NCBI GenBank assembly: GCA_037439705.1
Contig: JBBIVP010000023.1
Coordinates: 1-15,343, forward strand
DNA: 15,343 bases
Direction of reading: 5' to 3'
Source of the DNA: JBBIVP01 sp037439705 [NCBI: bacterium]
GTDB lineage: Bacteria > JBBIVP01
Under the pieces are notes generated by a model. The model was not told the origin of the DNA, did not search any database, and saw nothing but the letters and a program-made list of their open reading frames with translations. Below are positions 3,830-14,415 of this stretch, in pieces (positions within the stretch are counted from its first letter, which is position 1; each line of letters begins with the position of its first letter). The translations under genes and the position numbers were made by a program.

Positions 3830-4438
3830 TTAAATTTTTCGTCCGAGAACCTCTTTTATTTGTTCAACCGGAATCGCGCCCTCTCTTATCATAACCCCTT
3901 TATCAGGATCATAGACGGTGGACGGGAGATTATTAGATGAAAGCTCTCCGCCATCAACTACCATATCAACTCCATCCATTATTTCTTTTTCTATTTCTTG
4001 AACACAGGAAACAGGAGAAGACCCGCTCGTGTTTGCACTTGTTGCAATGAGTGGAATTTTTAAAATTTTCAAAATAAGAAGAGAAATTTTATTGTTCGGA
4101 ATCCTGACAGCGGATTTTCCATTTTGAGATAAAAGTGGATGGGAAAATTCTGAGCCAAGAAGAAGGGAAAGCGGACCCGGCCAGAAAACCTGTGCAAGAA
4201 AATACGCTTGAGGAGATACCCTGAAATATTTTTCAACCACATTCATACTCCCAACAATAAGTGGAAATGGTTTTCTTACACTTTCATTTCTCGATTTTAA
4301 TTTTTCAACCCTTGCAAGGGCATCTTCAACAAACGGAGAACAACATAGTCCATAAAGGGTATCAGTTGGAAGAATTACAATTCCTCCCTTTTCCAGTATT
4401 TCAACTGCCCTTGTTATATCTTTTGCTGAAATTTTCAT
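3830..4438 (-). CDS. tsaC: Sua5/YciO/YrdC family threonylcarbamoyl-AMP synthase
   Basis: This family makes threonylcarbamoyl-adenylate from threonine, bicarbonate and ATP, the first step of the t6A37 modification of ANN-decoding tRNAs. The 202 residues cover only the YrdC domain (short TsaC type, without the C-terminal Sua5 domain). Visible motifs are PTDTLYGL (24-31), the K-x-R motif K48/R50 followed by RKP (55-57), SANTSG (134-139), STV (173-175) and REGA (185-188). The ATG at 4438 lies 38 bp inside the end of purE; a GAGGAG stretch is about 13 bases upstream, a rather long spacing. A YciO-type paralogue of unknown role cannot be excluded, but the motif set favours TsaC. Confidence 0.85.
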   Translation of the reverse strand: MKISAKDITRAVEILEKGGIVILPTDTLYGLCCSPFVEDALARVEKLKSRNESVRKPFPLIVGSMNVVEKYFRVSPQAYFLAQVFWPGPLSLLLGSEFSHPLLSQNGKSAVRIPNNKISLLILKILKIPLIATSANTSGSSPVSCVQEIEKEIMDGVDMVVDGGELSSNNLPSTVYDPDKGVMIREGAIPVEQIKEVLGRKI

Positions 4439-4907
4439 TTTCTTTTTTCATCTCCTCTTCAAGTTTTTTTCTCCTTTCAATTAGAAGATTTTTTAACTTT
4501 TCGTCAGAAACCGCAAGGATGGAAACAGCAAAAAGTCCAGCATTATAAGCACCTGCCTTCCCTATTCCCATACATCCAACAGGTATGTGCTTCGGCATCT
4601 GAACTATTGAAAGAAGTGCATCAAGACCGGTTAATTCCTCTGAATAGGCAGGAACGCCTATAACAGGGAGAAGAGTCTTTGAAGCAACAATTCCTGGAAG
4701 ATGGGCTGCTTTTCCTGCAATTGCTATAAATACCTTTGTTCCATTTTTCTCCGCTTCCTTTATAATTTCTTCAAGATAAGCAGGGGAACGATGGGCTGAA
4801 GCAAGAAAAACGCTTCTGGTCACTCCAAACTCGTCAATTGCCTTTAAACATTCCTTGAGAAGTTCCTCATCGGATTGAGACCCAATTATTATTGTTATTT
4901 CGCTCAT
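4401..4907 (-). CDS. purE: N5-carboxyaminoimidazole ribonucleotide mutase, PurE
   Basis: PurE moves the carboxyl group of N5-CAIR to C4 of the imidazole, giving CAIR in purine synthesis. The 168-residue protein has the family blocks GSQSD (9-13), SAHRSP (37-42, with the catalytic His), AGKAAHLPG (64-72) and a C-terminal LLSIVQMP...GKAGAYNAGL region typical of class I enzymes. No purK lies beside it, so whether it acts as mutase or directly on AIR (class II) cannot be settled here, though the motifs favour class I. The last 25 residues are a charged Lys/Glu tail that overlaps the next gene. Its ATG overlaps the yraN stop (ATGA), with a GAAGGGGG ribosome-binding site ahead. Confidence 0.94.
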   Translation of the reverse strand: MSEITIIIGSQSDEELLKECLKAIDEFGVTRSVFLASAHRSPAYLEEIIKEAEKNGTKVFIAIAGKAAHLPGIVASKTLLPVIGVPAYSEELTGLDALLSIVQMPKHIPVGCMGIGKAGAYNAGLFAVSILAVSDEKLKNLLIERRKKLEEEMKKENENFSKRYNKGS

Positions 4908-5248
4908 TCAAAACCCCCTTCAATGTATTCAATTACTCTCAATTCTTCAAGGTTTACCCATATAAAATCAAACCTCATTTGCAGTTCTATTGCCCATTTA
5001 TTTCTGGATACAAAGTCAAGGGCAGTAGTTTTTATTTTATTAATTTTACTTCTGTTAATTTTTAAAGGACCACTGAAAGGAGAAGTTTCGGATTTTACTT
5101 CAACAAAACACAATTCACCCGAAGGAGCTCTTGTGATGATATCCAATTCTCCATATTTCGTTGAGTAATTCCTTTCAATTATTTTGTGCCCCCTTCTTTT
5201 TAGGAACTCCACAGCAACATCTTCACCTTTATTCTTTCCTTTCTTCAT
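4904..5248 (-). CDS. yraN: UPF0102 (YraN) family endonuclease-fold protein
   Basis: A 114-residue member of the YraN family, which has a restriction-endonuclease-like (Holliday-junction resolvase-like) fold and no firmly established role. Visible family residues are E9, N27, GELDII (33-38), FVEVKSE (48-54; the putative D-ExK metal site is D36, E50, K52), and RFDFI (92-96). Its ATG overlaps the rnhB stop as ATGA, and its stop overlaps purE in the same way. The rnhB-yraN pairing is one of the best conserved features of the trmD-rplS neighbourhood in many bacteria, which supports the call. A DNA-processing role is an inference from the fold. Confidence 0.9.
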   Translation of the reverse strand: MKKGKNKGEDVAVEFLKRRGHKIIERNYSTKYGELDIITRAPSGELCFVEVKSETSPFSGPLKINRSKINKIKTTALDFVSRNKWAIELQMRFDFIWVNLEELRVIEYIEGGFE

Positions 5249-5835
5249 TTGAGAAGTTTGAATCCTATTCTGTGATAAGGGCTCGGACCTTTCAGAGAAA
5301 TTATCTCCCGATGCTCCTTTGTAGGATATCCCTTATGTTTTGAAAAGAGATAACCCGGACAGAGCCTGTCAAGTTTTTCCATGTATCTGTCCCTCTCCAC
5401 CTTTGCAATTATGGAGGCAGAAGCAATGCTCATGCTTTTTCTATCCCCTTTTATAATGGATTTTTCGCATATTTCTGTTCCAAGTTTTATGTTTCCATCA
5501 ATTATGAGTGCATCGGGTTCAACTGGAAGAGCAAGAATTGCTCTTTTCATGGCAAGTTTCGTGGCTCCAAGAATGTTAAAATTTTTTATTTCCTCCTCCG
5601 TCGCTATTCCAACAGCCCAGTGACAATTTTTTTTAATGATTTCAAACAACCTGTTCCTTTCCTCTGGTCTCAACCTTTTACAATCGTCAATGCCCTTACA
5701 CCTGATTGGTTCCTCAAATATAACAGCGGAAGCAAATACAGGTCCTGCAATGGGTCCCCTTCCTGCTTCATCAACACCTGCAACATACCTGAATCCTTTC
5801 TTCCACAGACTTCTTTCAATTCTCCAGTCAGGCAT
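5245..5835 (-). CDS. rnhB: Ribonuclease HII
   Basis: RNase HII cleaves the RNA strand of RNA:DNA hybrids and nicks at single ribonucleotides embedded in DNA, starting ribonucleotide excision repair. The 196-residue protein has the catalytic DEAGRG motif (22-27; D22 and E23), the DDCKRL segment (50-55), IDGN with D113, and the block MSIASASIIAKVERD ending at D149. The C-terminal GPSPYHR motif is also typical. The ATG overlaps the stop of the ATPase gene by one base (TAATG), with GAGG seven bases before it, and its own stop overlaps yraN by four bases, so translation is coupled on both sides. Confidence 0.96.
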   Translation of the reverse strand: MPDWRIERSLWKKGFRYVAGVDEAGRGPIAGPVFASAVIFEEPIRCKGIDDCKRLRPEERNRLFEIIKKNCHWAVGIATEEEIKNFNILGATKLAMKRAILALPVEPDALIIDGNIKLGTEICEKSIIKGDRKSMSIASASIIAKVERDRYMEKLDRLCPGYLFSKHKGYPTKEHREIISLKGPSPYHRIGFKLLK

Positions 5836-7724
5836 TATATCCTCAATACATTATCTGCAAACCTTTCAATCTCTTTAACCCTTGAAAAAATTAAACCCTG
5901 TCCAGTTCTTCCCGCAATTTCCTTCACTTTTGAATAAAATTTTTCCCTCTTTGAATCATCCATTGTGATAAAGACATCATCAAAAATAAACGGGATATTT
6001 CTCACACCCGACTGATAATCAATGAAAGAAAGAAGAAGGGAGAGAAATGCCATATCAATAACAGAGCTGGAAAGAAAATCAAAAGAAAAAAAATCTCCTT
6101 CCGGATTTCTCATCCCTAATTTATCGTCCTCAAATGCTACAGTCTCAAATTTTCCTCCTGAAACCTCTTTAAGGATTGGAACAAGGTGGTCCAATAAAGA
6201 GGAAATGGAATTTTCTTTGTCCTGTCCCATAACCCTTGAAAGCTCATCTAAAAAATCAATCAAATCAGCACTTTTCAACGGTTCAAACGAAGGAAGAGTT
6301 GTTTCTTCTCTTCTCTCCCCTTCCATCTCCAGGGATTCCTGAAGTGTTCTGAGCTCTTCTTCAATTTCATGTTTTGAAGCGGAAGAAGTGCCAAGGCTCT
6401 GCAGTTCCTTTTTCAGTGCCTCAATCTCTCCTGACAGCCTTGCTTCTTCCGAATTTAACTCCTCGTCGCTCATATCAGAAATCTCCTTCTCAAGTTCTGC
6501 CTTTGCTTCTTCCAGCTCCCTTTTCGTTTCATTAAAGGAATAAACCTTCTGTGGAAGGTCATCGGGACTCATTAGCCCAATCTCTTTTGTAATTATTTCA
6601 ATTTTTTTAAGCTCCAATTCCACCTGGTTTTCCTGTTTTTTAAGCCTTAATTCCTTTTCCTTTAGAGTTTTCAAAAGTTCCTCTCTTTTTGCCTTTTTGC
6701 TTAATTCATTAAATAATCCCCAGAAAACTGTACCGATAGAACCTATGATAATGGGAAGAAATAAAAACCGAAGCGGTAGGGAAAGGCTTTCAAGATTTAT
6801 CAAAGAAAGAATCGGGGTTCGGATGAGAAAGAGAAGAAGTGAAACTCCGAACACAATGCTTCCAACCTTTACAAAGGAATTCTTAAAAATTCCATCGCCA
6901 CCAAGCTTCTCTATCTCTTCCTTTAAAGGCTCTATCTCATGAAAAAATGCTGCTCTTATTTTCTCCTTCTCCTTCAACAATTTTTTGTAATTGGCAAGTT
7001 TTCCTTCAACATCATGAGAAAGTTCCTCAAGCGGAGCATTTTCTTTAACCACCTGAGTAAGAAGTTCAATCCTATCTCTCAAATTGCTCCTTTTCTCTTT
7101 TCTTTCCTTTATCTTAAAAATTTTTCTTTCCAGATCGCTCAAAAGTTCTTCCTTTTCTTCAATTTTTTTGACCCTTTCCAGCTCCTCCGATAGCTGTTTT
7201 ATTCTATTTTGAACCTCTTCTTTCGCAGTTCCTTCTTTTTTCTCCTTCCTCTTTGAAATTTCTTCTTTTACAAGAGAAATTTTTTTAGCCTCGGAAAAAG
7301 ACGGAAGGTCTGTGTGGGTGGCAGAGAACAATCTTCTGTATATGTGAAATGGAAAAAGGTGGAAGGTATCTTCAAGAAGGGAAGAAAGGGAAAAAGGGTC
7401 TCTTGAAACCTCCTTGAAGGTTTTTGTCTGAGGCTCATATTTAAAAAGAACAAATCCACCTGTTGACAGGTCTCTTATAACCCTATAAATGAAGTTATCA
7501 TTTCTAAAAGTAACAGAAACCCTTGGAGGTTCACCACCAGAAATCCTTATTTTCTCGTGAAGGTCCTTCCATCCCTCGGAAAAAAGGGAAGCGAAAATGC
7601 AATTGAAAATTGTGGTTTTGCCTGATGAATTTTCACCAATAACTGCATTTAACCCATTCTTTAACTGTAACCTTATGGAATTAAAAGGTAAAACCCCCTT
7701 TATTCCAATCTCGATTATCTTCAC
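5835..7724 (-). CDS. Membrane-anchored Rad50/YhaN-like coiled-coil ATPase
   Basis: A 629-residue SMC/Rad50-type ATPase. Visible are Walker A GENSSGKT (30-37); a first coiled coil (about 155-280); two hydrophobic segments likely to cross the membrane (about 283-302 and 316-337); a second coiled coil (about 340-470); an ABC-signature-like region [15 protein letters not shown] (550-564) that lacks the usual Gly; and Walker B FIFDDVF (579-585). The layout resembles YhaN-type proteins, partners of an Mre11/SbcD-like nuclease in some bacteria, but no such nuclease is encoded here. The GTG start overlaps the rplS stop (GTGA) and the stop overlaps rnhB, so it is translationally embedded between L19 and RNase HII. 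DNA-end or chromosome processing at the membrane is an inference; the actual role is unknown. Confidence 0.8.
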
Positions 7725-8116
7725 TCTTTTTCTTCTGGGGGACTCTCTTCCTTTTTCTCTTCTTTTGCTGACTCAGTAAGTAACTCCTTCACCTTTGCCT
7801 TTTTCCCTACCTTTTCTCTCAGGTAATAAAGCCTTGCTCTTCTAACCTTTCCTCTTCTCAGAACCTCTATTTTCTCAATGAACGGTGAATGAAGCGGAAA
7901 TGTTCTCTCCACACCAACACCGTAAGAAATTTTTCTTACCGTAAAAGTAGCACCTGTTCCGCTTCCTCTCTTTCTTATCACCACACCATCAAAAGGTTGA
8001 ATCCTTTCTTTATCTCCTTCCTTGATCCTGAAATAAACCCGGATGGTATCACCCTGTCTGAATTCAGGAAGGTCTGGTCTTAAAAATGGCCTCTCAACCT
8101 CAATAAGTTTATTCAT
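7721..8116 (-). CDS. rplS: 50S ribosomal protein L19
   Basis: L19 lies at the 30S-50S interface of the ribosome. The ATG at 8116 ([19 protein letters not shown]) matches the family start and has an excellent AAGGAGGTAAAAAA leader, so I reject the longer frame that reaches 8170. Conserved blocks include FRQGDTIRV (19-27), QPFDGVVI (40-47), [15 protein letters not shown] (64-78) and [12 protein letters not shown]. At 131 residues it is longer than the usual ~115 because of a charged tail ([14 protein letters not shown]) that ends by overlapping the ATPase start by four bases. The trmD-rplS pairing is typical of bacteria, but here a 165-bp gap with its own candidate promoter separates them. Confidence 0.96.
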
Positions 8117-8281: not shown

Positions 8282-9025
8282 CTATTTTTTAACCGATGAG
8301 TTTTCTTTAAGTTTTTTCAGGCTCTCGAGTTCTTCTTGTGTAAGTAATTCCTCTCTTATAATTTCGGGTCGCCTTTTTAGGGTTCTTTCAATGGTTTTCA
8401 TCATTCTCCATTTTCTTATTTCCTTGTGATTTCCGGAAAGTAAAACCTCAGGGACGGATATACCTCTGAAAACAGCGGGTCTTGTCCACTGAGGATAATC
8501 AAGAAGTCCCCTTGAAAAACTATCCTCCTCAACGCACTTCCTGTTACCGACAACTCCTGGCACATACCTTGAAACCGCATCAATCAGAACTGCTGCTGCG
8601 GGTTCTCCTCCCGTAAGTATATAATCGCCAATGGAAATCAAATCCTCGCAGAAATGCTCAAGAATCCTCTCATCTATTCCTTCATACCTTCCACAGAGAA
8701 TTATTATTTCTTCATATTCGGAAAGTTCTTTCACAATCTTCTGATTCAGTAATCTTCCAGCAGGAGTCATAGCGATAACCCTCTGTTTTCTCTCAGGATT
8801 TATAATGCTTTCAATGGCTTTTACAATGGGCTCCGGCTTCAACACCATTCCTCCTCCACCTCCGTAAGGAAGGTCATCAACGGTTTTATGAAGGTCTTCT
8901 GCAAAATCTCTGATATTTATGATTTCTATTTTTACATCTCCTCTTTCAACAGCCTTTCCAAGGATGCCTACACTCAAAGGTCCATCAAAGTATTTCGGAA
9001 GGATAGTTAAGATGTAAAACTTCAT
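8282..9025 (-). CDS. trmD: tRNA (guanine-N1)-methyltransferase TrmD
   Basis: TrmD methylates G37 of tRNAs that have G36, using S-adenosylmethionine, and so prevents +1 frameshifting. The 247-residue protein has the SPOUT trefoil-knot motifs: LCGRYEGIDER (108-118), SIGDYILTGGE (131-141) and the downstream YPQWTRP...VPEVLLSGNHKEI block. The start MKFYILTILPKYF is the family start. The ATG follows the phosphatidyltransferase stop by eight bases with a weak purine-rich site. rpsP and rimM, usual upstream neighbours, are absent and a lipid gene takes their place. The stop is TAG; 165 bp separate it from rplS. Confidence 0.97.
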   Translation of the reverse strand: MKFYILTILPKYFDGPLSVGILGKAVERGDVKIEIINIRDFAEDLHKTVDDLPYGGGGGMVLKPEPIVKAIESIINPERKQRVIAMTPAGRLLNQKIVKELSEYEEIIILCGRYEGIDERILEHFCEDLISIGDYILTGGEPAAAVLIDAVSRYVPGVVGNRKCVEEDSFSRGLLDYPQWTRPAVFRGISVPEVLLSGNHKEIRKWRMMKTIERTLKRRPEIIREELLTQEELESLKKLKENSSVKK

Positions 9026-9033
9026 ATTAAAAC

Positions 9034-9798
9034 TTACTTCTTTTCTCCTCTAAGGGAATTTATTGAATGAACTGCCCTCTGGTAAACTGTGATTGTGGCC
9101 ACAATGCATAAAAAAAGAAGGATAATTTTGAAGAAAAAATAATTTCCAAGTCCCAATGGTTTGTTTATTATGTGATACAAAATGGGCTCAAGCGTTGAAA
9201 CTCCTCCAAGATATATGATTCTTTCCGGTCTCTGCATCCATCCAACTGAACAATTAATACCAAGTGCCTCTGCCCTTGCCTTTGCATAACTTATGAGTTG
9301 AGAGGAAAGGAGTGTGAGAACCGCAACAACAAGCCAGAACGGCGATTTTCTAAAATAGTAGATTATTCCCGTATAAACCAGCCCTTCCGCAATCCTGTCC
9401 GAGAAGGAATCAAAGAAAGCCCCATCCCTGGTAACCATATTTTTCTTCCTCGCAATTCTTCCGTCAAGCAGGTCAAAAAAACCTGAAAGAAAAAGAAGCC
9501 ACCCTCCAAGTGGAAAATGACCCACTGCATATGATAGACCCGAAAAAAAACTTATTATTACAGAAAAACCTGTAACCTGATTGGGGGTTATCTTCAAACC
9601 GAGAATTGCCCTTTCCACAGGATAAGTAAGCCACATCCACCACTGCCTCAAAAACTGCCCGAGAAAGACAGAGGCTCCTCTTGACCATACTTCCTTATCA
9701 AAAATTTTATCCTTTCTCCACTGAAAAAAATAAAAGAGGGCCATTGAAAAAAGGAAGAAAGAGGGAATTATTATAAAAGCAAGCTCACTGGGCTTCAC
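9034..9798 (-). CDS. CDP-alcohol phosphatidyltransferase (PgsA or inositol-phosphate type)
   Basis: An integral membrane enzyme of phospholipid synthesis that transfers a phosphatidyl group from CDP-diacylglycerol to an alcohol. The signature D-x2-DG-x2-AR-x8-G-x3-D-x3-D is complete: D109, D112, G113, A116, R117, G126, D130, D134. There are about six membrane segments plus an extra hydrophobic N-terminus (6-26). The later segment SYAKARAEALG (170-180) followed by RPER (190-193) resembles phosphatidylinositol-phosphate and archaetidylinositol-phosphate synthases more than glycerophosphate-using PgsA. The start is GTG at 9798, 14 bp inside the end of the DUF4340 frame, with a weak ribosome-binding site. 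The fold is certain; the substrate is not. Confidence 0.85.
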   Translation of the reverse strand: MKPSELAFIIIPSFFLFSMALFYFFQWRKDKIFDKEVWSRGASVFLGQFLRQWWMWLTYPVERAILGLKITPNQVTGFSVIISFFSGLSYAVGHFPLGGWLLFLSGFFDLLDGRIARKKNMVTRDGAFFDSFSDRIAEGLVYTGIIYYFRKSPFWLVVAVLTLLSSQLISYAKARAEALGINCSVGWMQRPERIIYLGGVSTLEPILYHIINKPLGLGNYFFFKIILLFLCIVATITVYQRAVHSINSLRGEKK

Positions 9799-10003
9799 CT
9801 TTTTTCTCTTCTTCCTTATATTTCTCCTTATCTACCTCAAGTTTTCCTGTTATATCCGGTTTTGTAAGATAAACATAGGGTTCAGTTGAAAGTTTAAAAT
9901 AAACCCCTTCCTTTGAGGGAGAGAAAAGGACTTCAAGGGGACTTTCTCCTTCTGCAGTAATTTTTACTATGTACTGGGGATTATCAAGTCCATATTTTTT
10001 CAA
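9785..10003 (-). CDS. DUF4340 C-terminal portion, in frame after an internal stop
   Basis: This frame continues the DUF4340 protein immediately beyond the TAA at 10039-10037: the codons after the stop read VEKFVDDTPKDLKKYGLDNP, homologous to the internal repeats RDLKAVDFVDD...YGLSSP and EFGLEPP upstream. The only in-frame start is a TTG at 10003 with no usable Shine-Dalgarno, so independent translation looks poor; it probably represents the third repeat of one original protein. The tail is Lys/Glu-rich (KEKYKEEEKKGEAQ) and overlaps the phosphatidyltransferase start by 14 bp. No function is known. Readthrough, a recent nonsense mutation or a sequencing error are all possible. Confidence 0.55.
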   Translation of the reverse strand: MKKYGLDNPQYIVKITAEGESPLEVLFSPSKEGVYFKLSTEPYVYLTKPDITGKLEVDKEKYKEEEKKGEAQ

Positions 10004-10036
10004 GTCCTTTGGAGTATCATCTACAAATTTTTCTAC

Positions 10037-10039
10037 TTA
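10037..10039 (-). other. In-frame TAA interrupting the DUF4340 gene
   Basis: The stop lies between RDIRNV and VEKFVDD, where the homologous repeat upstream has an uninterrupted junction (RDLKAVDFVDD). The distance from this stop to the downstream frame is a multiple of three, so no frameshift is involved. A single C-to-T change from CAA (Gln) would explain it. Confidence 0.8.
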
Positions 10040-11158
10040 AACATTTCTTATATCCCTCAAAAGGTCTTCCACAACCCATCCTTTCGCCTTAATTTTTTCT
10101 GCACCTGCGGTCAAAAACCAGTTTTCCTCTCCTTCCTTTTCAAACATGAAATTCCCTTTTGGCGTTGATATTGTAAAATTCTTTGTTTTCCATGTATAAA
10201 ATGAAATGGGTTTCTTCTCCCTGAAATCATCGAGTTTTTTCATGCATTCATCATAGAGCGCAGAGCCTATTGAATAAACGGTTTTCTTCCCCTCCTTCAT
10301 CGCATATACGAGTTCCTCTTTATTCTTTTTGAACCTCTTCCCCAGTTTCAAAACCAATGGTTCCTTTTCCTTCCTTTGAACCTCAATAATCACATCCGGT
10401 GAGGAAAGCCCATAGATTTGAAGGTCTGAAGGTGAATCGTCAACAAAATCAACCGCTTTTAAATCCCTTATACTTGATACAAGCTTTGAAATCTGGTCGT
10501 TTGAACCCCTTACATTTTTTGGGAGGATTTTCCACTTCTCTTCTGTTTCTTTTTCAAAAATTATCTCCTCTTTACCCCTTTTTATTCTCATCTGAGAAAG
10601 CTCAGCAACAGAAAACTCCATGATTTTTTTATTCCTGTAATCCTTGATTTCTTTATTGAGGTCATTCAGTATGGAAGCACTGACAAGGTAGAGCTCTTCG
10701 TCTCCCTCTTTTGTGGCATAAGCAGAATATCCAATCGGAGCCTTCTTTCCGAGAAGGAGTTTATATTCTTTTCCATCTTTGTCCTTCAGGGTAATCATAA
10801 ATTCAGGAGGTTCAAGACCAAATTCTGATATGTTTTCCACCTCACTCTTTTTGAATCTCCGGGTGGGCTTTTCATCCTCAAGTTTCCTTGCTATTCCGTT
10901 GGGAATGTAAGGATCTGCTTCCGCCGATATAGGAGATGTAATTTCCCAGAAATCCTCACCCGCTTTTTTAAAATGGACCTCATCATTTCTTGACTGCCGT
11001 TTTATAGAAACCTCAAGGATATTGAGGCTGTTAAAATTAAACAATTTTTCTTCGGCTGTTTTTTTCTTTTTCTCAATGGTTTTAGATATATAAAGTCCTA
11101 TCCCTACAACAATTGCAATACCAAGTAATATGAGTGGAAGTCTGAAAATTTTAAGCAT
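10037..11158 (-). CDS. DUF4340 membrane-anchored protein, N-terminal portion (interrupted gene)
   Basis: A 373-residue frame with one N-terminal membrane anchor (about 7-25) and the rest predicted outside the cytoplasm. It consists of repeats characteristic of DUF4340: FGLEPPEFMITLKDKDGKEY...LYLV (113-160) and YGLSSPDVIIEVQRKEKEP...VYSI (249-297), each preceded by a W-x-I segment and a short acidic helix. A third repeat follows in the same frame beyond the TAA, so the intact protein would be about 457 residues. The gene starts three bases after the GldG-like gene, and DUF4340 genes are commonly seen after Gld-type ABC exporters, suggesting a shared role in an envelope complex. Ribosome-binding site weak. 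Molecular function unknown. Confidence 0.75.
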   Translation of the reverse strand: MLKIFRLPLILLGIAIVVGIGLYISKTIEKKKKTAEEKLFNFNSLNILEVSIKRQSRNDEVHFKKAGEDFWEITSPISAEADPYIPNGIARKLEDEKPTRRFKKSEVENISEFGLEPPEFMITLKDKDGKEYKLLLGKKAPIGYSAYATKEGDEELYLVSASILNDLNKEIKDYRNKKIMEFSVAELSQMRIKRGKEEIIFEKETEEKWKILPKNVRGSNDQISKLVSSIRDLKAVDFVDDSPSDLQIYGLSSPDVIIEVQRKEKEPLVLKLGKRFKKNKEELVYAMKEGKKTVYSIGSALYDECMKKLDDFREKKPISFYTWKTKNFTISTPKGNFMFEKEGEENWFLTAGAEKIKAKGWVVEDLLRDIRNV

Positions 11159-11161
11159 TTT

Positions 11162-12721
11162 TTAAAGGTTCTTTCTTGAAATCCACACGGAAATTCCAGC
11201 AATGAAGATAAGAACGGGAACGAAGATAGAAGTTATGTAAAATAATATCTTCCCGGCATTAGCACTCATGTTGAGTTCTCTTGCTTCCCTTTTCTTTGGT
11301 CCTATCGCCACAATATCTTCCTCCTGAGAAAGCCAGTTTAAAGAGTTCAAAAAAAGGTCACCGTTTCCTGAAAACTCAAAGAATGAATTTGAAGGAAAGT
11401 CTGAATCTCCAACCACAACTAACCTCATCCTCTTTTCCGGCTTTTTCTCTTCCTCGGATGGCACATTTTCTTCTTCTTTCTTCTTTTTTTCTGCAACCAT
11501 CATTAATGTAATTGGACCCCCTATCTCCTTTACATCATCAAATTTCAGTTCCTGTTTATCAATAACTTTTTCAAACAAGCTGTTCGGAATTGAACTTGCT
11601 ATGGCTGAAACTTCAATTCCTTCAGGAAGCTTAACTTTTGAAAGGGCTGAAGCAATTGGAAGGATTGAAGCGTAATTGAAATCTTTTGTTATTTCATGGG
11701 ATTCGTATTTTGTGATTACAGGCATTGTGAAGTGACCCCCGAAAAGCCTGGAAAGAGGGTCAATCACAAGTCCATTTGTATCAACCTTTATTCCGAACTC
11801 CTCAGCAAGCACCTCAAGTCCTGATTCTGTCAATGGGTCTAACATAAGCATAAGGGAACCATTTTTCTCAGCGAGATATTTACGGAGTGCTGAAATTTCT
11901 TCCGGAAGAAGCTTTTTCTTTGGACCCGCCACAATAAGTGTGGAACATTCGTTTTCCAGTTCCTCTCCCTTTTCAAAAAGGGTTATTTCCTTGACCTCCA
12001 TCCCCTGAGACTCAATTGCGGTCTTTGCTCTGGAATAACCATTTTCTCCAAAGTCTGATATTGATTTCTCGCCATGACCCGTGACGAAACATACGGTCTT
12101 TTTTGAGCCCCTTGTTATCTTCACAATAGCATTTGTAATCCCCTCTTCGGTTGCTTCTGTTGTTTTATTTTTTCTGTATATAGCCACAATTGTCCCGAAA
12201 GAACGGACATCGTGCTGTTGAGCAAGTCCTGGCGATTTCTCGGGGTCAATTAGTCTGTATTCAAAGTTCTTCGTCTCATAACTGTACTTCTCCAGAAGTT
12301 CCTTCGCATTCACCCAGTCAGGACTTCCTTCTTTAAAGAACCCGTAAATTGTAACTTTATCCTTTCCATTTCCTATTTCCTTAAGAACTTTCCTGGTCTT
12401 CGGGGAAAGACTGAAAATTTTTTCCTCTGTAAGGTCAACCCAGGTGTATCTTGAATTTAGAAGGATGTTGAGAAACACAAGGATTAAAAGGGAAAAAATA
12501 ATCGTGAAAAAGGCACTGCTACCATAAAGAAATGCCCTTCTTCTGACACTTGAACTCAATTCCTCCCTGTTAAAATAGAGGTAAAGGAGAAGGAAAAGAC
12601 AACCTATTGCAATAAGGGGTATCCAGGCATAAGGATAGTCTTTCAACATAAGAAGTGCTAAAAATCCTATAAATATAATGAAAATTCCTATTGTTCCTGC
12701 CCACTTCTTCAGAAATCCCAT
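11162..12721 (-). CDS. GldG-like ABC exporter auxiliary protein
   Basis: A 519-residue membrane protein of the GldG / ABC-type auxiliary family. Three N-terminal membrane segments (about 8-27, 31-50, 66-90) are followed by the typical YTWVDLTEEKIFSLSPKT entry (92-109) to a large extracytoplasmic domain, with VCFVTGHGEKSI (210-221) and VVVGDSDFPSN (435-445), and one C-terminal membrane segment (about 490-514). A low-complexity Lys/Glu insert lies at 411-431. The family contains no catalytic motif I recognise; the domain is thought to bind partners or substrate of the exporter. The ATG has a perfect GGAGGTGAT leader and follows the permease stop by four bases. In Bacteroidota, GldG serves gliding motility; elsewhere its role is unknown. 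Confidence 0.85.
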   Translation of the reverse strand: MGFLKKWAGTIGIFIIFIGFLALLMLKDYPYAWIPLIAIGCLFLLLYLYFNREELSSSVRRRAFLYGSSAFFTIIFSLLILVFLNILLNSRYTWVDLTEEKIFSLSPKTRKVLKEIGNGKDKVTIYGFFKEGSPDWVNAKELLEKYSYETKNFEYRLIDPEKSPGLAQQHDVRSFGTIVAIYRKNKTTEATEEGITNAIVKITRGSKKTVCFVTGHGEKSISDFGENGYSRAKTAIESQGMEVKEITLFEKGEELENECSTLIVAGPKKKLLPEEISALRKYLAEKNGSLMLMLDPLTESGLEVLAEEFGIKVDTNGLVIDPLSRLFGGHFTMPVITKYESHEITKDFNYASILPIASALSKVKLPEGIEVSAIASSIPNSLFEKVIDKQELKFDDVKEIGGPITLMMVAEKKKKEEENVPSEEEKKPEKRMRLVVVGDSDFPSNSFFEFSGNGDLFLNSLNWLSQEEDIVAIGPKKREARELNMSANAGKILFYITSIFVPVLIFIAGISVWISRKNL

Positions 12722-12725
12722 CTTA

Positions 12726-13493
12726 TCACCTCCATCTGTTCGACTCTATCGTTATATATGTTAAAAAAATGCCAAAGATTGTAAAACTCAAATAATAAAC
12801 GATGTCCCTTGTATCAATGAGACCCTTTGTGAAGTTGTTGAAGTGTTCAAAAAAGGAAAGATACGAAAATACCTTCTCGCCTATTTCTCCTGCTGCCTGA
12901 GAAGCCCACCCAATTAGCCAGAAGATCAAAAGCATGCTGAAACTGACAACCGCAGCAATCGCCTGATTTTCGGTTATTGCTGAAGCGAAAGTTCCAAGGG
13001 AGATAAAACTCGCTCCCATGAATATCAATCCAAGATAGGTGCTTAAAATAACTCCTTTTTCAGGATTTCCATATTTGAGGAGAATTACTGGAAACGGAAT
13101 GGTGAATGCTATCATCAAAAGGAAGAGAAGGAATGCGGAAAAGAATTTTCCAACAGTTATTTCAATTGAATTTATTGGAGAGGTATAAAGAAGTTCAGTT
13201 GTTCCCTGCCTCTTTTCCTCAGCAAAAAGCCTCATCGTCATTATCGGTACCAGAAGCATGAGGATTACGGATAAATTTCCATAAAGCGGTCTTATCACAA
13301 AATCCGTAAGATTGAGCCTTTCTGCAAACCACGGATACCTTGATGACATAAGCATCTGAATCATATAAGCCTTACAAATATTGAAAAACATATATCCGGC
13401 AAGGAATGTAAAAAAAGCGATCAGCACATAAGCAGTGGGGGAGTAAAAATAGGATTTAAATTCCTTTGCTGTCAAATAGAGAATTCGTTTCAT
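12726..13493 (-). CDS. ABC-2 type permease (GldF-like)
   Basis: A 255-residue membrane permease with about six membrane segments. The N-terminal KRILYLTAKEFKSYFYSPTAY region, the loop around MTMRLFAEEKRQGTTELLYTSPI (86-108), and the ELLYTSP coupling-helix motif are typical of ABC-2 and GldF-like exporters. It begins two bases after the ATPase stop with a GGAGGG ribosome-binding site and is followed at once by the GldG-like gene, so the three genes are one unit. It forms the pore, probably as a dimer with the ATPase. The exported substrate is not known. Confidence 0.9.
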   Translation of the reverse strand: MKRILYLTAKEFKSYFYSPTAYVLIAFFTFLAGYMFFNICKAYMIQMLMSSRYPWFAERLNLTDFVIRPLYGNLSVILMLLVPIMTMRLFAEEKRQGTTELLYTSPINSIEITVGKFFSAFLLFLLMIAFTIPFPVILLKYGNPEKGVILSTYLGLIFMGASFISLGTFASAITENQAIAAVVSFSMLLIFWLIGWASQAAGEIGEKVFSYLSFFEHFNNFTKGLIDTRDIVYYLSFTIFGIFLTYITIESNRWR

Positions 13494-13494
13494 T

Positions 13495-14415
13495 TCATCC
13501 CTCCTGAGAAATTCTTTTTATATAAATCTCCTCAAGGGTTGGAAGGTTTTCTTTCATCTCCACGAGTCTCATTCCGGATGATACAATTGTTTTAACAATC
13601 TCATCTCTCGGATCCGACCCCTTTGCACATTCAACAAGAAATTCGCCATCCTTTCTTTCCACTGCCTGAACCCCCTTCAACGATTTGAGAAGATTCAACA
13701 CAGCCTCCCTGTCTCCGTCTATCCTTAAAGAAAGCACAAGTTTTTCTCTCTCTTTTCTGTAAAGGTCTTCAAGTGAATCTTCAGCCACGAGCCTCCCCCT
13801 GTTTATTATAAGAACTCTTGAACATACCATCGTTACCTCAGGAAGTATGTGGGTTGAGAGAATAATTGTATGCTGTCCCTTCAAACTCTTTATGAAATTT
13901 CTTATTTCCATTATCTGCTGGGGGTCAAGTCCAAGTGTGGGTTCATCAAGAACAAGAACCTCCGGATTGTGAACGATAGCCTGAGCAATTCCAACCCTCT
14001 GTCTGTATCCCTTTGAAAGATTCTTTATAAGCCTCCCTCTCACCTCTTTCAAACCGCACTTCTCTATTACCTCTTCAATTGCCCTCTTCCTGTCTTTATT
14101 TGAAACCCCTTTTATCTTTGCTACGAAATCAAGATAGGAATAAACGCTCATATCAAGATAAAGGGGAGGGTGTTCAGGAAGGTACCCTGTTCTTCTTTTT
14201 ACCTCTAAGGGATGGCTCGTTACATCATATCCACAAACACTCGCTGTTCCAGAGGTGGGAGCAAGAAATCCTGTTATTATTCTCATTGTTGTTGTCTTAC
14301 CAGCCCCATTTGGACCAAGGAATCCGAGTATCTCACCCTTCTCTACTCTGAACGAGACATCCTCAATTCCTATTTTATCACCGTATTTTTTTGTTAAATT
14401 TTTAACCTCTATCAT
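13495..14415 (-). CDS. ABC transporter ATP-binding protein (GldA-like)
   Basis: A 306-residue cytoplasmic ATPase that powers the adjacent permease. Motifs: Walker A GPNGAGKT (34-41), GYLPEHPPLY (77-86, where E81 replaces the usual Q-loop Gln, a pattern seen in GldA-like and ABC-2 ATPases), signature LSKGYRQR (133-140), Walker B VLVLDEP (153-159) and switch His in STHI (H189). About 80 residues of C-terminal domain follow, as is common in ABC-2 exporters. The ATG at 14415 has a strong GGAGGAGG leader. It starts the four-gene cassette ATPase-permease-GldG-DUF4340 and lies 41 bp after the dsbA-like gene. Confidence 0.93.
   Translation of the reverse strand: MIEVKNLTKKYGDKIGIEDVSFRVEKGEILGFLGPNGAGKTTTMRIITGFLAPTSGTASVCGYDVTSHPLEVKRRTGYLPEHPPLYLDMSVYSYLDFVAKIKGVSNKDRKRAIEEVIEKCGLKEVRGRLIKNLSKGYRQRVGIAQAIVHNPEVLVLDEPTLGLDPQQIMEIRNFIKSLKGQHTIILSTHILPEVTMVCSRVLIINRGRLVAEDSLEDLYRKEREKLVLSLRIDGDREAVLNLLKSLKGVQAVERKDGEFLVECAKGSDPRDEIVKTIVSSGMRLVEMKENLPTLEEIYIKRISQEG

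What the first reader, a model, noticed from the sequence alone, without database searches (positions are those of the whole stretch)
5835..7724. Membrane-anchored Rad50/YhaN-like ATPase embedded between rplS and rnhB
The conserved bacterial order trmD-rplS-rnhB-yraN is interrupted by a coiled-coil ATPase with two membrane segments in the middle of its coiled coil. Its start overlaps the L19 stop and its stop overlaps the RNase HII start, so its dosage is tied to both. It sits beside two nucleic-acid enzymes (RNase HII and the nuclease-fold YraN) and no Mre11-like nuclease, suggesting a possible membrane-linked DNA or RNA:DNA processing module.
Basis: partly seen in the sequence, partly recalled or inferred. 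Interest (0 to 1): 0.6.

Follow-up and report, generated by a model that had tools for sequence, protein, structure and literature searches.

The report
Membrane-anchored Rad50-like ATPase beside YraN
A ribosomal-protein gene cluster of an unidentified bacterium carries a DNA-repair-type ATPase with a membrane hairpin in the middle of its coiled coil; the distant relatives found keep it at the same spot, close to a small nuclease-like gene and without its usual nuclease partner beside it.

Summary
The model is a Rad50-type ABC head whose halves are joined by a coiled coil with a membrane hairpin at its tip. The arrangement recurs: 9 of 395 genomes drawn from one phylum carry full-length homologues (19-28% identical). 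All nine lie directly behind rplS and are followed by yraN, directly (5) or after rnhB (4). They are every held genome of three small classes. Nearest relatives are YhaN/SbcE ATPases: 23 of 23 hand-picked control loci hold a YhaO/Mre11-like gene, none of ten rplS-linked loci does. The rplS-linked proteins form a separate branch (100/100) and lack the ABC signature glycine (0 of 9 against 22 of 22). dN/dS near 0.2 argues against decay. Best reading: a membrane-tethered, Mre11-less YhaN-like DNA clamp, with YraN as likeliest nuclease partner (inferred). RNase HII is not a constant partner. New variant of a known kind; host lineage unidentified.

The parts
5835..7724 (-). Membrane-anchored Rad50/YhaN-like ATPase, 629 aa
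7614..7637 (-). Walker A, residues 30-37 (GENSSGKT)
6903..7226 (-). N-terminal helical arm, residues 167-274 of the model
6822..6878 (-). First predicted membrane segment, residues 283-301 (mean hydropathy 2.23)
6711..6767 (-). Second predicted membrane segment, residues 320-338 (mean hydropathy 2.08)
6327..6710 (-). C-terminal helical arm, residues 339-466
6054..6074 (-). Degenerate ABC signature, residues 551-557 (LSSSVID; Ser554 where the YhaN controls have Gly)
5955..5990 (-). Walker B and D-loop, residues 579-590 ([12 protein letters not shown]; Asp583 at the catalytic position)
7721..8116 (-). rplS (L19); the listed ORF begins at an upstream TTG, 8170; the likely start is the ATG at 8116
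8282..9025 (-). trmD
5245..5835 (-). rnhB (RNase HII), with the DEAGRGP motif
4904..5248 (-). yraN (UPF0102), nuclease-type motif GELD...FVEVK intact; likeliest partner

Best explanation
It is a membrane-anchored member of the Rad50/SMC superfamily, nearest to YhaN (SbcE), that has no Mre11/YhaO phosphoesterase gene beside it and sits in the trmD-rplS-(rnhB)-yraN cluster. Shown by sequence or model: the two half-heads fold into one Rad50-type ABC head. Two arms of roughly 110-130 residues lead to a hydrophobic hairpin in place of a zinc hook or hinge; an even number of membrane segments keeps both half-heads on the same side, taken to be the cytoplasm. Inferred: two copies dimerise their heads on ATP around DNA at the inner membrane, forming a clamp that turns over slowly because the signature glycine is lost. 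Inferred and less certain: YraN, a PD-(D/E)XK-type nuclease made from the same cluster, does the cutting that Mre11/YhaO does elsewhere, in recombination, break processing or uptake of DNA.
For: Fold: Foldseek best match the archaeal Mre11-Rad50-DNA structure, E 3.9e-11; VIA-align Z 26.1 to Pyrococcus Rad50, 276 residues, 3.0 A; profile hits to Rad50 at both half-heads. The orthologue L028 gives the same layout. Two hydrophobic segments at the tip both reach 1.6 in 6 of 9 members. Conserved position: 9 of 9 behind rplS and followed by yraN, in all held genomes of three classes, 2/2, 4/4, 3/3. No YhaO: 0 of 10 loci against 23 of 23 control loci. 7 of 9 genomes have no SbcD-profile hit at E<=1e-5. 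Where rnhB is absent, yraN follows directly, overlapping the ATPase by 4 nt in L021 and by 1 nt in L025/L095. YraN keeps its E...D...ExK-type residues (Lys is Arg in two of eight). [quoted passage not shown] YraN is called a helicase-associated nuclease in transformation (passage in PMC12455585 citing a preprint).
Against: No interaction or activity was tested. yraN follows rplS without the ATPase in L010 and, further off, in L011, and rnhB follows rplS without it in L003, L004 and L007, so adjacency may be inherited rather than functional. YraN is cited as working with a different helicase, ComM. One UPF0102 protein made recombinantly showed no detected activity (table passage, PMC10140301). 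The catalytic acidic residue is Ala or Thr in 2 of 9 members, so ATP turnover may be absent in some. The topology rests on hydropathy and on a model with block pLDDT of 48-76 over residues 281-340; in 3 of 9 members the second segment is weak (1.44, 1.23, 0.86), and both flanks are richer in Lys/Arg than the loop in only 5 of 9. Completeness of the nine genomes is not told, so the missing SbcD could be a gap.
Confidence: 0.4

Rival explanations
1. It is a membrane-to-DNA tether without any nuclease: an ATP-gated clamp that holds the chromosome or transcribed DNA at the membrane. YraN and RNase HII are neighbours only because trmD-rplS-rnhB-yraN is an old gene order.
For: Signature glycine absent in 9 of 9 and catalytic acid lost in 2 of 9 suggest binding rather than turnover. 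rnhB is dispensable at the locus. rplS-rnhB or rplS-yraN neighbours exist at loci without the ATPase (L003, L004, L007, L010).
Against: Every YhaN control locus holds a nuclease-type gene (23 of 23). yraN stays next or next but one to the ATPase in 9 of 9 relatives, also where rnhB is gone.
Confidence: 0.3
2. It is an ordinary YhaN/SbcE whose YhaO or SbcD partner is encoded elsewhere in the genome.
For: 2 of 9 genomes have a weak SbcD-profile hit, G100 and G098.
Against: 7 of 9 have none at E<=1e-5, and none passes the family cut-off. In G100 the weak hit lies about 3 kb from a separate 791-aa YhaN-type frame, so that YhaO seems to have its own YhaN (read from coordinates, not fetched). The rplS-linked proteins form a separate branch with a different signature motif.
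Confidence: 0.1
3. It has no DNA role: an SMC-type ATPase serving the membrane or translation, kept beside rplS for growth-linked expression.
For: It follows a ribosomal protein gene in 10 of 10 loci. Many ABC ATPases have no DNA partner (general knowledge).
Against: Head and fold are closest to Rad50 and SMC heads. Operon neighbours of ribosomal genes are often functionally unrelated (general knowledge).
Confidence: 0.15
4. It is a decaying YhaN copy.
For: Degenerate signature; the window protein has a long branch and lacks the Glu of the Walker A loop found in the other 8 members.
Against: Intact frames in the eight complete relatives and in the window; dN/dS 0.18, 0.23 and 0.21 in three of five pairs (in the third dS is 2.1, near saturation; in the other two dS was saturated); 25 invariant columns across nine members.
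Confidence: 0.03

Closest known systems
YhaN / SbcE (AAA_27, partner YhaO)
   Same: Split ABC head, Asp-Asp Walker B (20 of 22 controls), often a membrane hairpin in the middle of the protein (13 of 22 controls show two segments). Profile A1 finds 22 of 23 control loci's YhaN ORFs at E 1.8e-15 to 2.2e-33.
   Different: No YhaO neighbour, signature Gly replaced by Ala/Ser, shorter (629-665 aa against 695-1176 in the controls with both half-heads), fixed place behind rplS, separate branch.
Rad50 / SbcC
   Same: Head fold, Z 26.1.
   Different: No CXXC zinc hook (one Cys in the protein), a membrane hairpin instead, no Mre11/SbcD beside it, no LSGGE (that the hook and LSGGE mark Rad50 is recalled).
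SMC / cohesin / condensin
   Same: Head fold, Z about 24 to cohesin SMC3 and prokaryotic Smc heads.
   Different: Little room for a hinge domain at the tip; whether a kleisin exists was not searched.
YraN (UPF0102)
   Same: The neighbouring gene is a normal member.
   Different: No pairing with an SMC-type ATPase appeared in the listings or in the passages read.

Membership tests
Rad50/SbcC | Rad50-type bipartite ABC head | tested here: met
Rad50/SbcC | CXXC zinc hook at the coiled-coil apex (feature recalled) | tested here: not met
   translation: a single Cys, near Walker A; the apex is hydrophobic
Rad50/SbcC | Mre11/SbcD encoded beside it | tested here: not met
   no hit in the window or in 9 relative loci (two YhaO queries, tblastn E<=1e-3)
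Rad50/SbcC | Signature LSGGE-like motif (feature recalled) | tested here: not met
   LSSSVID; Ala/Ser at the Gly in 9 of 9
YhaN/SbcE | Detectable profile similarity of heads | tested here: met
   22 of 23 control loci gave a YhaN ORF matching profile A1, E 1.8e-15 to 2.2e-33 (E for a small search); controls were themselves chosen from matches to A1
YhaN/SbcE | Pfam AAA_27 above cut-off | tested here: not met
   window protein: no hit at E<=0.01; 6 of 9 alignment members hit at E<=0.01, best 2.7e-6; whole-genome search at E<=1e-5: 1 of 9 genomes, at another place
YhaN/SbcE | Neighbouring YhaO phosphoesterase | tested here: not met
   0 of 10 against 23 of 23
YhaN/SbcE | Signature with Gly (LSxG) | tested here: not met
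   0 of 9 against 22 of 22 controls
YhaN/SbcE | ATPase activity, DNA binding, break-repair phenotype | not testable with these tools
   -
SMC proteins | Hinge domain and kleisin partner | tested here: inconclusive
   About 64 residues (275-338) lie between the arms in the model, mostly the hairpin; kleisin not searched

The most novel reading that the evidence does not exclude
A new pairing of an SMC-type clamp with a nuclease: a membrane-tethered Rad50-like ATPase that has dropped Mre11/YhaO and controls the PD-(D/E)XK nuclease YraN instead, working at the inner membrane on recombining or incoming DNA.
Probability: 0.28. Interest if true: 0.75.

Novelty: new variant of a known kind. Interest (0 to 1): 0.52.

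Why it matters
Rad50-type ATPases are understood as partners of Mre11-type nucleases. This one has none beside it, is predicted to be held in the membrane by its coiled-coil tip, and has kept one genomic address in three classes and in the window's unplaced lineage. It gives a small, testable system for what membrane anchoring does for an SMC-type clamp, and a concrete candidate partner for YraN, a widespread but poorly understood nuclease-like protein.

Tried and rejected
Searches with no relative: the search for related loci with the ATPase in genome contigs and viral contigs; these reach close relatives only. None of the 19 TrmD loci (L001-L019) has an ATPase hit.

Surveys without full-length members at the thresholds used: 0 of 199 genomes from the phylum of G004 (Acidobacteriota by record title) and 0 of 145 from that of G007 (Omnitrophota) (E<=1e-10; 30 and 2 genomes had end-domain matches only), 0 of 299 from that of G006 (Pseudomonadota) (E<=1e-20). 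The tool scored only 3-7 first-look candidates per genome, so absence is not proven; the last answer carries the tool's own warning that an empty result shows nothing.

Replacement of SbcD: 0 of 9 ATPase genomes pass the SbcD cut-off and 2 of 9 have a weak hit, against 29 and 77 of 148 in a draw from the same phylum that includes ATPase genomes. Nine genomes from three classes are too few; I make no claim of exclusion. The profile also rings weakly on YhaO-type genes. The AAA_27 search missed the YhaN-type frame of G100, so it is no test for absence of YhaN.

Lineage of the window: a TrmD+L19 tree puts it in a weakly supported group (86/92) with the seven ATPase-bearing genomes of that tree, a Caldimicrobium MAG, one of two Acidobacteriota and an Elusimicrobia MAG; no close relative (highest identity 55%). 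Left open.

Defence-system profiles (best mad3, E 3.3e-13, residues 6-240; that library lists no cut-offs) were read as a shared ABC head and coiled coil, since the neighbours are housekeeping genes. TrlF, Rad50, ASRP and PtuA profiles of NCBIfam score far below their cut-offs. The Gpos_tandem_5TM and UvrD hits were taken as chance.

Rows dropped: L022 (cut by a contig end) from the alignment and tree; L102 (G180, fetched; the gene runs off a 4.6-kb contig, so its upstream neighbour is not visible) from the controls; L111 (no YhaN ORF passed) from motif and tree counts, though it counts among the 23 loci; L122 (no Walker A half) from the tree and from the length range. Controls were picked by hand; those in the set all have open frames under 830 aa, so the counts of membrane segments are not a fair sample of YhaN.

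The B. subtilis paper on SbcE (PMC2811018) is not held; I saw only its title in two reference lists and sentences citing it. That B. subtilis YhaN has membrane segments is recalled and is not used.

It corrected one overlap (1 nt, not 4, in L025/L095), the size of the tip, the pLDDT range of the hairpin and the account of the charge bias.

Full report
What is there. The minus strand carries trmD (8282-9025), rplS (to 7721), the ATPase (5835-7724), rnhB (5245-5835), yraN (4904-5248) and purE (4401-4907). The ATPase reads 629 codons from GTG to TAA. Its start overlaps the rplS stop by four bases and its stop shares a base with the rnhB start. Its base composition is that of its neighbours, so nothing marks a recent arrival.

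What the protein is. Pfam places the N-terminal half in AAA_23 above cut-off; AAA_27 (YhaN) is not matched. Against solved structures the best sequence match is archaeal Rad50, E 1.9e-10, with a weaker second stretch at the C-terminal half-head; the family profile matches Rad50 at both halves, E 1.5e-19. The AlphaFold model (mean pLDDT 78.8, pTM 0.47, nine sequences) shows a split head, helices 167-228, 230-234 and 239-274, a hydrophobic hairpin, and helices from 317 to 466 leading back to the second half-head. Foldseek ranks Mre11-Rad50 structures first (E 3.9e-11). VIA-align 2, a second look at Foldseek's matches, gives Z 26.1 to Pyrococcus Rad50 over 276 residues at 3.0 A, and 24.5 to SMC heads. 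An orthologue modelled on its own gives the same order of elements.

Membrane hairpin. I looked in each of nine aligned members for the two most hydrophobic 19-residue stretches between residues 271 and about 375. Both reach mean hydropathy 1.6 in 6 of 9; in the other three (L020, L021, L025) the second is 1.44, 0.86 and 1.23. The loop between them has 1-2 Lys/Arg. Both 15-residue flanks have more than the loop in 5 of 9 (window, L020, L021, L023, L025); the bias is weak or absent in L026, L027 and L028 and reversed in L024. Away from this region only the window protein has a stretch that reaches 1.6 (550-568), inside the head. The topology is a prediction.

The arrangement recurs. A search by sequence alone in 247 genomes of the phylum of a Caldimicrobium MAG (Thermodesulfobacteriota by record label) gave matches in 51 genomes at E<=1e-3. 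Nine were long (E 2.8e-17 to 6.3e-34); the next was 1.5e-6. All nine lie directly behind rplS. A profile search of 395 genomes, among them those nine, gave the same nine as its full-length matches; 100 further genomes had partial matches only. The genomes fall into three classes, of which every held genome has the gene: 2 of 2, 4 of 4 and 3 of 3. Behind the ATPase comes rnhB and then yraN in four (G026, G064, G100, G129) and yraN directly in five (G024, G044, G062, G081, G098; in G062 the gene is cut by a contig end and yraN is read from the second piece). With the window, yraN is there in 10 of 10 and rnhB in 5 of 10. Whether rnhB lies elsewhere in the five was not searched. Identity to the window protein is only 19-26% over the alignment and 20-28% in local alignments, against 44-51% for TrmD in seven of these loci: a fast-evolving protein at a fixed address. 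A TrmD+L19 tree groups the window with these genomes, but weakly (86/92). Inheritance from one ancestor at this place is the simplest reading, not a proven one.

How it differs from YhaN. The profile's end-domain matches elsewhere are largely YhaN-type ATPases. I took 23 such loci as controls, picked by hand: three fetched and 20, from the matches. All 23 hold a YhaO/Mre11-like phosphoesterase gene (tblastn against these loci, E 3.65e-5 or better); in the 22 where the YhaN ORF was delimited it is the next gene upstream. None of the ten rplS-linked loci has such a hit. Two of the 23 supplied the queries and match by construction, which leaves 21 of 21. In a tree of the heads the nine rplS-linked proteins form one side of a branch with 100/100 support against 21 YhaN proteins. 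The tool warns of long branches, among them the window protein's; its place within the group is unsure (83/75). The ABC signature glycine is present in 22 of 22 YhaN controls and in 0 of 9 rplS-linked proteins, which have Ala (5) or Ser (4). The acidic residue after the Walker B Asp is Asp in 20 and Glu in 2 of 22 controls, and Asp in 7, Ala in 1 and Thr in 1 of 9. A membrane hairpin is not unique: 16 of 22 YhaN controls show at least one hydrophobic segment of this strength and 13 show two.

Alive, not decaying. dN/dS was 0.18 (L020/L023), 0.23 (L021/L025) and 0.21 (L026/L028, with dS 2.1, near saturation); in two further pairs, of five tried, dS was saturated. The pair with Ala/Thr at the catalytic position (L020/L023) is under purifying selection, so the protein seems useful even where hydrolysis is doubtful.

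Mechanism. Shown by sequence or model: Rad50-type head, hydrophobic hairpin in place of hook or hinge, no adjacent Mre11-type gene, constant yraN close by. Follows from the family: ATP-driven head dimerisation around DNA. Inferred: slow or binding-only cycle because of the signature change; DNA held at the membrane; YraN as the cutting partner. For the last step the support is position (yraN next or next but one in 10 of 10; overlaps of 4 nt in L021 and 1 nt in L025/L095), the intact nuclease-type residues of YraN (Arg for Lys in two of eight aligned), the absence of a SbcD-profile hit in 7 of 9 genomes (genome completeness not told), and literature tying both families to recombination of incoming DNA: YhaN = SbcE in break repair and competence (title cited in PMC3896406 and PMC4205851, passages read) and YraN as helicase-associated nuclease (PMC12455585, passage read, citing a preprint that I did not see). 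PMC6452273 (passages read) calls the role of SbcEF poorly characterised. Against the step stand the age of the rplS-rnhB-yraN order, seen in part without the ATPase in L003, L004, L007, L010 and L011, and a recombinant UPF0102 protein with no detected activity (PMC10140301, passages read).

Novelty. In the library searched I found no paper describing this family or arrangement among the listed results: searches with YraN/UPF0102, YhaN with Rad50 and transmembrane, YhaN/YhaO, membrane-anchored SMC-like ATPases, SbcE/SbcEF, YraN with ComM, and rplS/rnhB/trmD/Rad50/UPF0102/YraN together. Several listings show only the top of longer lists, and subscription papers and preprints are not held, so this is a limited statement. 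It is a new variant of a known kind: YhaN-like, but failing two features that its nearest family shows throughout the controls (YhaO neighbour, signature glycine).

Limits. The window's own genome is not held, so partners elsewhere in it are unknown. The relatives are unnamed. Absence in other phyla is weakly tested. Nothing biochemical is known.

Noticed in passing
window 9785-11158 (-): A 373-aa DUF4340 ORF is followed by a separate 72-aa ORF that also matches DUF4340 (23.8 bits, just under the cut-off of 25); the gene may be split.
   Followed up: partly
window 10037-14415 (-): Cluster of ABC-transporter ATPase, ABC-2 permease, an ABC_transp_aux protein and DUF4340, as in gliding-type transporters (the likeness to GldG is recalled).
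   Followed up: partly
L094 11325-11903, L097 208-825, L098 11236-11802: In three of the four genomes of the class of G026 a similar ORF of 188-205 aa (GEVF[IV]GLVHYPV-type start) lies directly before rplS, between trmD and rplS where trmD is in view; it is not in the window.
   Followed up: no
L020 (ATPase residue 619) and L023 (residue 618): The residue after the Walker B Asp, normally Asp or Glu, is Ala or Thr in both held members of one class, yet the gene is under purifying selection.
   Followed up: partly
L100, L101, L108-L110, L116, L117, L120-L123, L126, L127: YhaN-type ATPases paired with YhaO often carry two hydrophobic segments in mid-protein (13 of 22 controls), while the longest ones (L103, L112, L113; 1167-1176 aa) have none.
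   Followed up: partly
G100 contig C80, about 31.8-35.1 kb: This ATPase-bearing genome also seems to hold a YhaO/YhaN pair, so the two systems can coexist (coordinates; not fetched).
   Followed up: no
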